DNA of 32,768 nt from Candidatus Poribacteria bacterium (GTDB taxonomy: Bacteria > Poribacteria > WGA-4E > JAJDTR01), in the NCBI GenBank assembly GCA_028820655.1, contig JAPPIK010000037.1, positions 1 to 32,768 on the forward strand, read 5' to 3'. Position numbers and translations under genes: made by a program. Shown one piece after another: positions 2,375 to 32,365 of the stretch (its first letter is position 1; the number at the start of each line of letters is the position of its first letter). The notes beneath the pieces were generated by a model. The model was not told the origin of the DNA. It made no database searches and saw only the letters and a list, made by a program, of their open reading frames with translations.

Positions 2375-2600
2375 ACTTTTAGATTGACAACTTAACATGC
2401 ATGTGGTATATTTTAGCAGGCCCTGGCAAAACATCATGGCGACGGAACTTTTTTCAGTTGGCACTTTGTTGGCATCACGATTCTTTAGGACTCGCTCACG
2501 CGGAGGAATTCTCCTTTTCAGACTATGCCAACACGCCGCATAAATCGGCGATCCGTTGGCAACACGCATCCAAATTCGGTTCAATTGGTTGAAGGAGTTC
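2375..2600 (+). repeat. Dispersed promoter-bearing element, copy A (5' block)
   Basis: This block aligns along about 220 bases with 31873-32085. The first 35 or so bases are nearly identical and contain a full promoter (2384-2412). Downstream similarity is patchy but collinear: GTTGGCA copies, TCACGATTC, a GGAATTCTCC/GGGATTCTCC box, ACACGCCGC and a terminal AAGGAG. A hairpin is formed by TGCCAAC (2526-2532) with GTTGGCA (2555-2561), enclosing CGCCG (2534-2538) with CGGCG (2546-2550). In copy B the outer arms are TGCTAAC and GTTAGCA, so both arms changed together. That pattern argues for a folded transcript. No protein is encoded with any confidence. Confidence 0.7.
2384..2412 (+). promoter_or_regulatory. 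Near-consensus promoter within element copy A
   Basis: TTGACA at 2384-2389, a 17-base spacer and TATATT at 2407-2412. The same boxes and spacing occur in copy B. No gene follows for almost 1 kb, so the expected product is a non-coding RNA starting near 2419. Confidence 0.65.
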
Positions 2601-2616
2601 AAACAAATTCTAACGG

Positions 2617-2885
2617 TAGGAGCGATCTCCAGGTCGCGATTCTCAGATTATCGTTGTCCCGGTAAAGGCTTCTTTTTTAGGAGCGATCTCCAGGTCGCGA
2701 TTCTTCATATATCATCGTCCCGGTAAAGGCTTTTTTTTTAGGAGCGATCTCCAGGTCGCGATTCTTCATATATCATCGTCCCGGTAAAGGCTTTTTTTTT
2801 AGGAGCGATCTCCAGGTCGCGATTCTCCACATATCATCGTCCCTGTAAAGGCGTCTTTTATAGGAGCGATCTCCAGGTCGCGATT
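2617..2885. repeat. 61-bp tandem repeat array, five cores
   Basis: Five copies of a 25-base core (beginning TAGGAGCGATCTCCAGG and ending TCGCGATT) start at 2617, 2678, 2739, 2800 and 2861, giving an exact 61-base period. The 36-base parts between cores are almost identical to each other (ATATCATCGTCCCGGTAAAGGC followed by a T tract), so this is a tandem repeat and not CRISPR. Within each core GCGATC and GGTCGC can pair around a short loop. A diverged piece of the core recurs at 32699-32717. Confidence 0.85.
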
Positions 2886-2936
2886 TCATAAGAAATCCGC
2901 TGCGTGCAATCAAGCGAAAGAGGGGTTAACGTATAC

Positions 2937-3045
2937 GAGCGCACTTTAGCGCACTTTGGCGCAGTGTGACGCACATGGCTTCAAGCCGCGCCCGGTAAGG
3001 CTTCAAGCGCAATTTCAGAGCTTATCCAAGGAGTGCGCTCTAATT
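2937..3045. repeat. Dispersed element copy A, 3' block closed by an inverted repeat
   Basis: The block is bounded by GAGCGCACT (2937-2945) and AGTGCGCTC (3032-3040), which are exact reverse complements. Inside are two copies of GGCTTCAAGC, the second within a 27-base stretch (2995-3021) that is identical at 32312-32338. The homologous block near the window end is closed by a different but again perfectly complementary pair, GCGCACAAA with TTTGTGCGC. The changes are compensating, which suggests RNA folding. Nothing here looks coding. Confidence 0.7.
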
Positions 3046-3352
3046 TCGAAACGCCGCCGCATTCGAGAATCGGGATTTACTTGCCGCCGCGCGCGCTATC
3101 AATTCATTTGAGAAGGCAACAAGCAGATTGGGATGTGACAAGTGTAATGATATCGGGTAAACTTAGGCTAGTGAATTGTTACACCCCCCTAGGAAATATT
3201 CGATGGATTTGGTTTCAGTATTCGAGCGGTTCCCGACACAAGCGCTTTGCACCGCCAACTCCTAGAACAACGATGACATCTTCGGTGCCTTCATCTATGG
3301 AGCCGTCACAGTCTAAAACGCTACCCGCGTACTTATCCCTACGGAGCGAATC

Positions 3353-4642
3353 ATGAACTACCAGCTGCACGAGTTAGCGACCCTTTTTCCCGGCATGACG
3401 GACGAAGAGTATCAGACTCTTCGATTGGATGTTCGGAATAATGGTCTTATACAGCCGATTGTATTGTGGCGCGAATCGGACGCCGACGACTGGGAAATCA
3501 TTGACGGCCGACATCGAGCGCTGGTATGCGAAGACCTGGGCATTGATCCAACCTACATTTATTTGCAGGGTGATATTGACCCGGTTCAGTACATTATCAG
3601 CGTGAACAGTCGCCGCCGGCATTTGACCGAAAGCCAACTGGGTATGATAGCCCAGAAACTGTCGCAGTATTCGCCCGACGATCCTCCGGTAAAAGCCAAA
3701 AATGACACTGTCCACGGACAGAATTACACCCAAAGAGAGGCCGCCGACCTGCTGGGCATCAGCACGAGCACGATAGCCCGTGCAAAGAAGATCGGCCAAT
3801 CGGGCACCCCGACACTCCAAAGTGCCGTGGCGTCCGGCTCGGTGGCCCTGCGCGATGCGGAAGCGATAGTTAATCGCCCTGCGGAAGTCCAAGATGAAGC
3901 CGTCCGGCGAGTGCAGGAAGCGGAGGCACAGGAGAAGCGGCTGAGAGTTCAAGATGCAATGAAGGACGTTGAACGCGAAATACGAAGGGCGAAGTGGGAA
4001 GAAACCCAGGCACAACGACGAGCGGCTCCAGCCCTGAACGAGGTGCAACTATTCCACGCCTCTTGCGCCGAGTTGCATCGGCACGTTGGCCCCGAAAGCG
4101 TAGATATCATCCTGACCGACCCGCCCTACAAGCCGGACACCCTATCCTGCTATCGAGATTTGGCTGAGTTTGCCGTTCATTCGCTCAAGCCGGGAGGCGT
4201 ATTGCTGGCAATGTCTGGCACATCACACCTGCCGCAGGTCATGGAATATCTGTGCAACACGGAGGGTTTAAACTACCATTGGACGCTGAATTACATGATG
4301 CCCGGCGGAAATCTGCGGTTTCACACCCGCGCTGTGCGAATGGGATGGAAGCCGGTGATCTGGCTGGTAAAGTGCAAGTCGGACGGGACTGACCGTTTCG
4401 ATGTCGTGGAAGCGCCCAGGCTGGCGATACAGGACACCCGCTTTCACGAATGGGGCCAGAATGAAGGCGGATTCAAGAAACTGCTGGACCTGTTCGCATT
4501 TCCGGGCCAAATCGTTTGCGACCCATTTTTGGGCGGCGGCACAACAGCGGTCGTCGCTCGTGCCGCAGGTTGCGGCTTTATCGGTGCTGACATTGACGGC
4601 AAATATCTGGAAATCACAGAGCAGAGATTGCAAGATGAATAG
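3353..4642 (+). CDS. ParB-domain DNA methyltransferase (beta-type motif order)
   Basis: This is a predicted adenine-N6 or cytosine-N4 DNA methyltransferase with an N-terminal ParB/Srx-like domain. Of its 429 residues, 1-90 carry the ParB motif IIDGRHRA (DGRHR at 51-55), 127-146 resemble a helix-turn-helix (QREAADLLGISTSTIA) and 180-225 are charged and helical. The C-terminal catalytic half has DPPY (256-259) before the SAM-binding DPFLGGGTT (390-398), the order typical of beta-class enzymes. The start ATG at 3353 has GGAG 6 bases upstream. Its last 8 bases overlap the next gene (ATGAATAG), implying translational coupling. Such ParB-methyltransferases are common in prophages and mobile islands; here no phage genes accompany it, only repeats. 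The target sequence cannot be read from the protein. Methyltransferase activity is near certain; its role (restriction or orphan) is open. Confidence 0.88.
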   Translation: MNYQLHELATLFPGMTDEEYQTLRLDVRNNGLIQPIVLWRESDADDWEIIDGRHRALVCEDLGIDPTYIYLQGDIDPVQYIISVNSRRRHLTESQLGMIAQKLSQYSPDDPPVKAKNDTVHGQNYTQREAADLLGISTSTIARAKKIGQSGTPTLQSAVASGSVALRDAEAIVNRPAEVQDEAVRRVQEAEAQEKRLRVQDAMKDVEREIRRAKWEETQAQRRAAPALNEVQLFHASCAELHRHVGPESVDIILTDPPYKPDTLSCYRDLAEFAVHSLKPGGVLLAMSGTSHLPQVMEYLCNTEGLNYHWTLNYMMPGGNLRFHTRAVRMGWKPVIWLVKCKSDGTDRFDVVEAPRLAIQDTRFHEWGQNEGGFKKLLDLFAFPGQIVCDPFLGGGTTAVVARAAGCGFIGADIDGKYLEITEQRLQDE

Positions 4643-5318: not shown

Positions 5319-5691
5319 CCCCTACGCCAAGCCACTGAATAGATCAAGTAACCGAATAGGATCAAACGAGTGATTGACGATTGATCAAGGAAGTGAATAA
5401 CGACTGATCAAGCGAGTGAATAGCGAGCGCGGTAGAACTCGCGTAGAAGTCCCATGGATATATTCTTGCGATAGAGTTCCCATAGTAAATTCTGACTGGG
5501 ATTCCTTCGGTGAAAAAAGGGGTTCCTAACATGAAGAACTTGAAACCTAAAAAGCGCGATTTCAAGCGGCGTAATGAATGACTCAATGTGGAAAATTATC
5601 TGTTCCAATACGGCGGCGATTTCATCCGTGAACTTTACACAATTTCGATTAATCCAAGATTATTCGAGAACACATTTGCTGTGGAGTCGTC
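5319..5691. other. Repeat-bearing spacer
   Basis: No gene is visible in this 373-base gap. The left half carries four degenerate GATCAAG-type repeat copies (5341-5435). The right half leads to the CoA-transferase start, which has GTGGAG about 7 bases upstream. A short frame from 5531 (16 codons) has no support. Confidence 0.55.
5341..5435 (+). repeat. GATCAAG-type dispersed repeat, locus 2 (four copies)
   Basis: Four consecutive degenerate copies of a motif close to GATCAAGCGAGTGAATAG are visible, the last followed by CGAGCGCGGTAGA. The tail matches GCGATAGAGA at the other loci. The motif family links this spacer to positions 28-82, 13771-13804 and 32093-32125. Confidence 0.65.
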
Positions 5692-21189: not shown

Positions 21190-21711
21190 TCAGGCATTAT
21201 TTCGCTCCGATAGAATCTCTCGGATTCCCACCGGGAGTTCCCTAACGGGGATCATTTCATCAAGCCGTTTTGTTAATTTAAACGTTACCCCCTGTCCTTC
21301 CGCCATCCGCACCAATCTGCCTGCCTTGTGTTCAGCAACCATTCCTTTACGCCACACGCCGAAAACTATATCATGCGGGCAAATCCCTAAGCAAAGGAGG
21401 TAATCATATTCCCGATCCAATCGAACATGGTTGAACTGGAATGTTCCATTAGCGCCCAGCGAAGCTGTCTTGATCTCGAGTTGAACTGTTCCAATTCGTA
21501 TGTCCGTCTTTGACGTACGGTCTCCGTTTCCGGTCTCGATCCCATTCTGTAGAAGATACTGGCGAATGAACTCCTCTCCGATTTCGCCGCGATTCGTGTT
21601 GCCAAGCATTCGGTAGCGAATCAACGGAGAATCTCTCCAAATATCCTCGGGCGAATGCTTCCGAATGATTGAGGCTAGCAGGTCAACTGGATTCACTTGG
21701 GAGGCTCCCAT
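21190..21711 (-). CDS. Predicted type II restriction endonuclease, PD-(D/E)XK fold
   Basis: A 173-residue protein with a readable nuclease core: helix RGEIGEEFIRQYL (41-53), then KTDIRIGTVQLEIKTAS with Asp70 and the Glu79-Ile-Lys81 (ExK) motif, followed by a strand DYLLCLGICPHDIVFGVW. It is small and soluble with no extra domain. The ATG at 21711 lies inside the end of the methyltransferase gene (19-base overlap in another frame), so the nuclease is made after and coupled to the protective methylase, as expected for a type II system. Target specificity is unknown; I do not recognise a named enzyme. Confidence 0.8.
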   Translation of the reverse strand: MGASQVNPVDLLASIIRKHSPEDIWRDSPLIRYRMLGNTNRGEIGEEFIRQYLLQNGIETGNGDRTSKTDIRIGTVQLEIKTASLGANGTFQFNHVRLDREYDYLLCLGICPHDIVFGVWRKGMVAEHKAGRLVRMAEGQGVTFKLTKRLDEMIPVRELPVGIREILSERNNA

Positions 21712-22418
21712 GCGCGTTTGTCTGATCCGCGTTTCCAGAATACTAGAAAGTACGAGTGATTTTTTCGCGCATGAACCTGACGCACTGTTCGACTGACACC
21801 GGGCTTGTTCTGACGCATTACCACGAACAAGTCCTCCGCCACGAAACCTATCCGCTCATAGGCTTGCATGATTTCAACATGAGTAAATCTCTGGCGATTG
21901 GCGCAGACCTCGTCTTGGCATTTCACGATTAGCACGCCGCGTTCGCGTAGTACCCTATGTGCTTCCACAGCAGCATCCTCGTAGAGCGATAGGACTGCCT
22001 CATGGTATTTCTTTGTAGTCCTGTTCCCGGTGCGGTTGTTTCTGTAGTGATGCTCGAACGCCCGGTGAACGGTATGAGCCGTTCCTCCGGGAGAATGCAT
22101 GTATGGTGGATCGAGCACAACGCAGTCGATTTCACCGTCTATGTAAGGAAGATCTCTGCAATCAACCCCGGTCAGGATGTCGGATGGCCTCAAGCGATAA
22201 AGATCTTCAGGTATTCGCCTCCAAAATACGCCTTTCCCGTAGGTGACATCAGCGACAATGCTACCCGGAGCAACGTACAATCCAATTACATGGCGGAAGA
22301 CATCATCATTCCCTTCGGTATAAGCGCTAAATACAAGATCGTTAGTCGGCTTGCCATTGCGAACCCGACGACGCGCTCGCGTTGCTTGAGGAACTCCGGT
22401 AATAGTCAGTTGGTTCAT
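21693..22418 (-). CDS. Site-specific DNA methyltransferase of a type II system
   Basis: A 241-residue SAM-dependent DNA methyltransferase. The SAM-binding motif I is VADVTYGKGVFW (55-66) and the catalytic motif IV is LDPPY (102-106), so motif I precedes IV, the order of alpha and gamma classes; its small size favours gamma. DPPY points to exocyclic amino methylation (adenine-N6 or cytosine-N4). The ATG at 22418 is preferred because AGGAG lies 7 bases upstream; the frame extends to a TTG at 22475 without support. The nuclease gene overlaps its 3' end. Together they form a compact restriction-modification unit with no control-protein gene visible. Confidence 0.88.
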   Translation of the reverse strand: MNQLTITGVPQATRARRRVRNGKPTNDLVFSAYTEGNDDVFRHVIGLYVAPGSIVADVTYGKGVFWRRIPEDLYRLRPSDILTGVDCRDLPYIDGEIDCVVLDPPYMHSPGGTAHTVHRAFEHHYRNNRTGNRTTKKYHEAVLSLYEDAAVEAHRVLRERGVLIVKCQDEVCANRQRFTHVEIMQAYERIGFVAEDLFVVMRQNKPGVSRTVRQVHARKNHSYFLVFWKRGSDKRAWEPPK

Positions 22419-22657
22419 GTCCGTGCTCCTAATTTCAGTGTCGCGTTTTACGCTACCTTTTAATGACACTTTCAACCACAGCGGCAGCTAATAGTTCTTC
22501 AAACTTGCCGAAGGTTATAACCATCAGCCCGATTTTTCTGTTCTCTTTACAACTTCACTTTACCAGATTCTAGAAACTAGTGCAATTTGATCTGCCTTAA
22601 GATGCCAGAATCAGAACGATTCGCCATACTTGCTGGCGGAATAATTGATAGCCTTCA

Positions 22658-31238: not shown

Positions 31239-31872
31239 AATTTCTATTGTCTCCTTTCCCGAAGCGAAAGCGATTCTATAGTACCGGTGCGATGCTGTCA
31301 ATAGTAAATGCCGATCTCGGTAGCCTAGACGCATCAAAATACGATAGATATCTTTCCGAAATAGCTCTTTGCAGGTACGGTAACACTGCTGATTAGAATA
31401 TAGCAAGTTGCTACCCATTCCCGTAGATTGGGCTTCTAGCCGGACACTCTTATAGAATGCATCGCAAATCGGGTCAACGGTCGTTAAATCGACGAAATCT
31501 GCTTGCAGTGGATTGACAAATTCACGGCACACATGCGCATACTGCTTGGATCTGCCTACCCAAACCGAGCAGGACTACAATTTAACACTCGGAAAATCTC
31601 AAATCCTACTGTTAACAATAGGTAGCAACTTGGACAGAATAACTATACTATTTGATGCCTTCTCGAGAGAGGCCTTTGGTGATGTGGCAAACCTTGCACC
31701 GTCTGACAATATGCTCATGGTAACCATCTTGTGGCGTCCACTCTCGATTGAATTACCTATTCCGTGCATCAAGCGCCGGCTCCGATGTTTCTTGATGGGC
31801 CTGGGAAATACAGTTTGGTGGTAACCTGATAACTGCTGTCGATATGACTCTTCTTCCCTCCCGAAACTTGGA
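31239..31872. other. Spacer, possibly with decayed coding sequence
   Basis: Open frames extend here on both strands but none has a ribosome site or family pattern. A minus-strand fragment around 31655-31740 encodes CKVCH (31684-31698), a haem-type CxxCH motif, but it runs between stop codons and is about 35 residues. I treat the region as non-coding. Confidence 0.45.
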
Positions 31873-32085
31873 ACTTTTAGATTGACAACTTAACATGTAT
31901 GTGGTATATTTTAACATAGCGCCGGTCATGGCGGTGCAACTATTTTTTCTGTTGGCATCTTGTTAGCATCACGATTCCTGAGAACCCGTTCCGCCAAAGG
32001 GATTCTCCATTTCAAATAATGCTAACACGCCGCTCAAATCAGCGCTCCGTTAGCATCTCTTTCCACTATATCGCTTCAAGGAGAA
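31873..32085 (+). repeat. Dispersed promoter-bearing element, copy B (5' block)
   Basis: Homologous to 2375-2600. The leading 35 bases with the promoter are almost unchanged; the rest is diverged but collinear. The hairpin arms TGCTAAC (32020-32026) and GTTAGCA (32049-32055) replace TGCCAAC and GTTGGCA of copy A. The inner stem here is CGCT (32031-32034) with AGCG (32041-32044). Confidence 0.7.
31882..31910 (+). promoter_or_regulatory. Near-consensus promoter within element copy B
   Basis: TTGACA (31882-31887), 17 bases, TATATT (31905-31910), identical boxes and spacing to copy A. No protein gene follows within the window. Confidence 0.65.
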
Positions 32086-32092
32086 AATACGG

Positions 32093-32125
32093 TGATCAAG
32101 CGAGTGGACAGCGAGTGCGATAGGG
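32093..32125 (+). repeat. GATCAAG-type dispersed repeat, locus 4
   Basis: GATCAAGCGAGTGGACAG followed by CGAGTGCGATAGGGA. It lies between the two conserved blocks of element copy B, where copy A instead has the 61-bp array. Confidence 0.6.
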
Positions 32126-32255
32126 ATTCAAGCGTTCATTGAGACAAGAGATAACTGCATTTGATAACATACTGAACACGGCAAACTTATGGGCGCAACA
32201 TTGCTTCCTAGTCTGCTATCGAGGCGTTCCTGAAAAAGTGGGTCGAAAAATACGC

Positions 32256-32365
32256 GCGCACAAAAGCGCACTCACGTGGCACGTGTAATACATGGCTTCA
32301 AGCCTCTCCACGTAAGGCTTCAAGCGCAATTTCAGAGCGTGTCGAATTTGTGCGCTCTAATCTCA
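32256..32365. repeat. Dispersed element copy B, 3' block closed by an inverted repeat
   Basis: GCGCACAAA (32256-32264) and TTTGTGCGC (32347-32355) are exact reverse complements enclosing two GGCTTCAAGC copies. The stretch 32312-32338 is identical to 2995-3021. Similarity ends shortly after the right arm (GCTCTAAT). Confidence 0.7.

What the first reader, a model, noticed from the sequence alone, without database searches (positions are those of the whole stretch)
2375..2600. Dispersed element with a near-perfect promoter and a covarying hairpin
Seen: 2375-2600 and 31873-32085 are homologous. Both begin with TTGACA, exactly 17 bases, TATATT, and no protein gene follows. The downstream hairpin has arms TGCCAAC/GTTGGCA in copy A and TGCTAAC/GTTAGCA in copy B. 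One base changed in each arm and pairing was kept, while much of the surrounding sequence diverged. Inference: the element is transcribed into a structured non-coding RNA, or is a small mobile element carrying its own promoter. I do not recognise it as a known RNA family.
Basis: partly seen in the sequence, partly recalled or inferred. Interest (0 to 1): 0.75.

Follow-up and report, generated by a model that had tools for sequence, protein, structure and literature searches.

The report
Transposon-borne promoter and hairpin module
A small DNA module, with a strong bacterial promoter followed by a conserved and probably RNA-forming hairpin region, has spread to dozens of places in two sponge-bacterium genomes by riding inside two unrelated kinds of disabled transposon, and it usually sits pointing at a neighbouring gene.

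Summary
Both window copies are homologous, carry TTGACA-N17-TATATT, and keep the hairpin by paired changes. They are 2 of at least 41 copies in this Poribacteria genome. A congeneric genome has at least 15 copies, one relative has 8 and another has 1; 69 other genomes of the order had none detected.

The family explains the dispersal. Copy B is a passenger in a non-autonomous element with IS5-type inverted repeats (left end 31345, right end beyond the window). In the congener the same module sits in about 575-bp elements with ISAs1-type ends and 10-bp target duplications, so two unrelated transposon types carry it. Copy A has no recognisable ends.

A 115-bp core is more conserved than its surroundings in three species, is non-coding, and matches no Rfam family. 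Three 8-mers change in concert: GTTRGCAT/ATGCYAAC/GTTRGCAT here, GTTCACAT/ATGTGAAC/GTTCACAT in the congener. This fits two mutually exclusive hairpins. A more distant genome lacks the fourth 8-mer.

The downstream gene runs in the same direction in 45 of 47 scored copies in the two congeneric genomes. Core-free MITEs are also biased, so this is suggestive only.

Most likely it is a mobile promoter plus structured leader or small RNA. Transcription and function are unproven; a protein-binding DNA site array is the main rival.

The parts
2384..2412 (+). Copy A promoter: TTGACA (2384-2389), 17 bp, TATATT (2407-2412), extended -10
   Evidence: Sequence; spacing is 17 in every G000 copy with a recognisable promoter except L025 (19) and L027 (21)
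2449..2563 (+). Copy A conserved 115-bp core (T-run to fourth 8-mer)
   Evidence: Covariance model match 119 bits
2457..2464 (+). Copy A 8-mer 1, GTTGGCAC
   Evidence: alignment
2468..2475 (+). Copy A 8-mer 2, GTTGGCAT (direct repeat of 8-mer 1, period 11)
   Evidence: alignment
2525..2532 (+). Copy A 8-mer 3, ATGCCAAC (inverted)
   Evidence: pair counts
2555..2562 (+). Copy A 8-mer 4, GTTGGCAA
   Evidence: pair counts
2922..3067 (+). Copy A downstream conserved block B (possible closing helix AGCGCACT..AGTGCGCT), separated from the core by a tandem-repeat array
   Evidence: BLAST between copies, alignment
31345..31363 (+). Copy B left inverted repeat TAGATATCTTTCCGAAATA of an IS5-type non-autonomous element; the right repeat is outside the window at contig 34306-34324
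31882..31910 (+). Copy B promoter: TTGACA, 17 bp, TATATT, extended -10
31919..31937 (+). Hairpin just after the promoter, followed by AACTATTTTTT (terminator-like by pattern)
   Evidence: hairpin sequence varies among copies; no termination shown
31943..32057 (+). Copy B conserved 115-bp core
   Evidence: Covariance model match 140 bits
31951..31958 (+). Copy B 8-mer 1, GTTGGCAT
   Evidence: alignment
31962..31969 (+). Copy B 8-mer 2, GTTAGCAT
   Evidence: alignment
32019..32026 (+). Copy B 8-mer 3, ATGCTAAC (inverted)
32049..32056 (+). Copy B 8-mer 4, GTTAGCAT
32114..32364 (+). Copy B downstream conserved block B

Best explanation
A dispersed, apparently Poribacteria-restricted passenger module that spreads inside non-autonomous transposons. 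Its parts are a strong sigma70-type promoter, a short variable leader, and a conserved 115-bp core. Shown: many copies; IS5-type ends in this genome and ISAs1-type ends with 10-bp target duplications in the congener; conservation of promoter and core above flanks; concerted changes of three 8-mers. Inferred: the promoter transcribes the core, whose third 8-mer pairs either with the second or with the fourth, giving two exclusive hairpins. The transcript acts as a structured leader, or a small RNA, that sets read-through into the same-direction gene downstream.
For: Copies: 36; 41 in G000, 15 in G001, 8 in G004, 1 in G014; 4 of 73 genomes of the order. Ends: TIR TAGACATCTTTCCRAAATA, 79 hits against 4 in the reversed control; an IS with the same ends carries HTH_Tnp_4 and DDE_Tnp_4 ORFs. 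Congener: CAGGGGAAACGCATCT ends, a same-ended IS with PF13808/PF01609 transposase, exact 10-bp duplications ATAGCTCGGA, CCTCAAAACT, CGGACGGGAT. Constraint: core identity 0.85-0.93 against 0.62-0.69 for adjacent element sequence in G004, same trend in G001 and G000; not coding. Covariation: pairing of 8-mers 3:4 in 93.7% of cells against 24-30% when slid, 32 double-changed cells against 12.9 shuffled; 8-mers 2:3 similar; on a G000 tree 8-mers 3 and 4 changed together in 3 of 3 independent changes. Promoter hexamers at 17 bp in nearly all copies that have them. Downstream gene co-oriented in 45 of 47 scored; same-strand neighbours 23 against 1 (binomial probabilities).
Against: No transcript data. 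Covariation rests on two to three variable columns; the tree test alone cannot reach significance (3 pairs). Folding z-scores range from -0.2 to -3.9. Core-free MITEs of the same genomes are also placed non-randomly upstream of genes, and G004 shows no orientation bias (3:4), so the bias is not specific proof of a promoter effect. Several old G000 copies and the G004 copies keep the core without recognisable transposon ends, and L024, L029 and L030 keep the core without the promoter. G004 lacks 8-mer 4.
Confidence: 0.55

Rival explanations
1. The core is a DNA site array. A host or element protein binds the 8-mers (two direct repeats 11 bp apart, one inverted, one direct) and represses or activates the promoter; concerted changes reflect changed protein specificity.
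For: Very few indels across about 110 bp and 36 copies in four genomes, so spacing is fixed, unusual for RNA loops; 11-bp direct repeats kept in all species with different sequences; a further GTTCACAT in G001 downstream.
Against: 8-mer 1 does not co-change fully with the others, although a protein reading the repeat should require it; one-sided departures at the A-U pair are mostly G-U (GTTGGCGT), as RNA pairing allows. No candidate protein was identified.
Confidence: 0.25
2. A stand-alone trans-acting small RNA gene that happens to have been multiplied by transposons; it ends at its own terminator and has no role for the neighbouring gene.
For: Own promoter; AT-rich hairpins AAATCAAGTTTTTTCTTGAAAACTTGATTT follow block B in many copies; G004 copies have no orientation bias.
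Against: Co-orientation with the next gene in G000 and G001; the same AT-rich hairpin also occurs away from the element, for example after a core-free promoter at C2:45315; 41 diverged copies of one trans RNA would be redundant.
Confidence: 0.15
3. Ordinary decaying MITEs with an incidental promoter; conservation only reflects recent common ancestry.
For: TIRs, target duplications and a trans-acting IS are present; core-free MITEs show similar gene-upstream placement.
Against: Core is clearly more conserved than adjacent element sequence in three species, shared between two unrelated transposon types, and changes in concert.
Confidence: 0.05

Closest known systems
Promoter-bearing MITEs such as MITEAba12 of Acinetobacter (PMC6382973)
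   Same: Short non-autonomous TIR element, many copies, outward sigma70-type promoter; for MITEAba12 transcripts were reported from one of its promoters
   Different: MITEAba12 is about 113 bp, only weak secondary structure was predicted and no genome-orientation preference was found; here a conserved core is shared by two unrelated TIR types
Putative mobile promoters (Matus-Garcia et al. 2012, as cited in PMC9208149; the paper itself was not read here)
   Same: Homologous promoter regions dispersed upstream of unrelated genes
   Different: Here the vehicle is identified and the promoter comes with a conserved, covarying 115-bp core
Mobile insertion cassettes / transporter IS (from memory)
   Same: IS ends without transposase carrying passenger sequence moved in trans
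   Different: The passenger is not a protein gene but a promoter plus non-coding core

Membership tests
Non-autonomous TIR element (MITE / mobile insertion cassette) | Terminal inverted repeats matching an IS with transposase in the same genome | tested here: met
   G000: TAGACATCTTTCC ends shared with IS at C9:21037-22029. G001: CAGGGGAAACGCATCT ends shared with IS at C108:1795-3046. Not met for window copy A, which has no recognisable ends
Non-autonomous TIR element (MITE / mobile insertion cassette) | Target-site duplication | tested here: met
   Exact 10-bp duplications in G001. For IS5-type copies only a flanking TA, which may be part of the repeat, is seen
Non-autonomous TIR element (MITE / mobile insertion cassette) | No transposase gene of its own | tested here: inconclusive
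   No Pfam hit in the element ORFs examined; the whole copy B element was not fully annotated and contains a run of N
Mobile promoter | Promoter active in the host | not testable with these tools
   No transcript data; consensus and conservation only
Known Rfam RNA family | Match at the curated threshold | tested here: not met
   Window none; five loci from three genomes at E up to 1 gave only two matches far below their families' thresholds
Integron attC/attI site | Core site GTTRRRY / RYYYAAC (from memory) | tested here: not met
   8-mers GTTRGCAT and GTTCACAT do not fit GTTRRRY

The most novel reading that the evidence does not exclude
A self-contained regulatory RNA module, with a three-arm switch in which one 8-mer pairs alternately with two identical partners, has been captured independently by unrelated transposon families and is kept by selection as cargo because it controls its own promoter's read-through into host genes.
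Probability: 0.25. Interest if true: 0.8.

Novelty: new variant of a known kind. Interest (0 to 1): 0.5.

Why it matters
If true, it shows a non-coding cargo conserved across different transposon vehicles, that is, a regulatory element behaving as an independent unit of selection in bacteria. It also gives a natural set of more than 60 variants, several upstream of housekeeping genes (for example groEL, ligA and rpsF, recognised by eye from their sequences), in an uncultured phylum.

Tried and rejected
Protein coding: rejected, every frame has stops in many copies and there is no codon periodicity. tRNA/tmRNA: none. Rfam: none. Integron attC: motif does not fit. TnpI-type recombination site (four repeats in 116 bp, from memory): rejected because 16-bp repeats spaced 11 bp would overlap and G004 lacks the fourth 8-mer. 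Promoter inherited from the transposase gene: rejected, the IS upstream sequences differ. Conserved synteny: only one shared location, upstream of a dicarboxylate symporter, compatible with chance. Viral contigs: no match. Exact-pattern scan of 84,980 species genomes: only Poribacteria records, which limits but does not exclude diverged relatives.

Full report
Observation. The two window copies are as described: TTGACA, 17 bp, TATATT, then a region with compensated arm changes. They match over about 187 bp, and a further homologous block lies downstream. The window is the start of contig C31 of a 5.88-Mb genome; the related records that bear names are Candidatus Poribacteria MAGs.

Copies. A BLAST search finds 36 matches in the genome. 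A covariance model from 36 aligned copies finds at least 41 here, 15 in the one congeneric genome, 8 in G004 and 1 in G014; 69 other genomes of the order gave none at that filter setting.

Vehicle in this genome. Young copies, including copy B, lie in 2-3 kb elements bounded by TAGACATCTTTCCGAAATA and its inverse. That repeat occurs 79 times against 4 for the reversed control. An element of 993 bp with these ends encodes HTH_Tnp_4 and DDE_Tnp_4 proteins, which I take for an IS5-type transposase. Copy B starts at 31345 and its right end lies outside the window at contig position 34324. Copy A has no such ends.

Vehicle in the congener. In G001 the same promoter-core unit sits in about 575-bp elements with CAGGGGAAACGCATCT ends, exact 10-bp target duplications in several copies, and a same-ended IS whose transposase has PF13808 and PF01609, which I assign to the ISAs1 type from knowledge of that family. 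The transposase genes' own upstream sequences differ from the element promoter, so the module is passenger DNA.

Core. Across species the layout is T-run, two direct 8-mers 11 bp apart, GAACCCGC about 12 bp later, an inverted 8-mer, and in G000 and G001 a fourth 8-mer. The 8-mers differ by species: GTTRGCAT (G000), GTTCACAT (G001), GGTTACCT (G004, no fourth). Pairing 3:4 is kept in 93.7% of cells and 2:3 in 88.6%, against at most 51% in any slid control, with double changes far above shuffles; 8-mer 1 does not follow at one of the two changing positions. On a tree built without the columns of 8-mers 2, 3 and 4, 8-mers 3 and 4 changed together in all three independent changes; that count alone is too small for significance. 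The core is better conserved than adjacent element sequence in all three genomes, is not coding and has no Rfam match. Two mutually exclusive hairpins (2:3 or 3:4) would explain the three-way constraint; protein binding to DNA is not excluded.

Promoter. The hexamers stand 17 bp apart in every G000 copy with a recognisable promoter except two. Similar promoters occur without the core elsewhere in the genome, so it is probably a common strong promoter type here. Three old copies have lost it, or never had it, but keep the core.

Placement. Using a simple codon-usage gene caller, the next gene downstream runs in the element's direction in 33 of 35 scored G000 copies and 12 of 12 in G001, and in neighbourhoods where both neighbours run the same way the count is 23 to 1. 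Control MITEs without the core are also non-randomly placed upstream of genes, and G004 gives 3 to 4, so this supports but does not prove transcription into host genes. The downstream genes are largely unrelated to one another: a few pairs share distant or partial similarity, and one pair is orthologous between the two genomes.

Verdict. Mobility and family are well supported; transcription, structure in vivo and function are inferred.

Noticed in passing
window 2618-2890: Tandem array of about four 61-bp units (GGAGCGATCTCCAGGTCGCGATTC...) between core and block B of copy A; similar short repeats lie in many other copies.
   Followed up: no
L101:4536-4574, L102:4689-4726 and 5462-5501, L103:4816-4862, L104 (minus strand, contig C15:258121-258156): Close relatives of the element promoter (TTGACAACTTTACATGTGTATAGTATATT and similar) without the core, at least one directly upstream of an ORF: possibly a common strong promoter type in this genus.
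   Followed up: partly
L165-L184 (congeneric genome G001): A core-free MITE of about 236 bp with the same ISAs1-type ends, 20 copies examined, nearly always with one given end facing the 5' side of a gene.
   Followed up: partly
L060:2445-2774 and matching parts of L061-L065: Conserved ORF-like stretch (..VRDSLREREIERFPDNVQRLRDIL..) in the right half of several IS5-ended elements; no Pfam match.
   Followed up: no
L093:6006-6120 and L138 (minus strand): Core copies upstream of the same dicarboxylate-symporter-like gene in both congeneric genomes, each with its own species' 8-mer type: independent insertion or sequence conversion.
   Followed up: partly
window 21693-22475 and 3353-4642: Two partial N6/N4 DNA-methylase domains, one with a weak ParB-N-like match, in the same window.
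   Followed up: no
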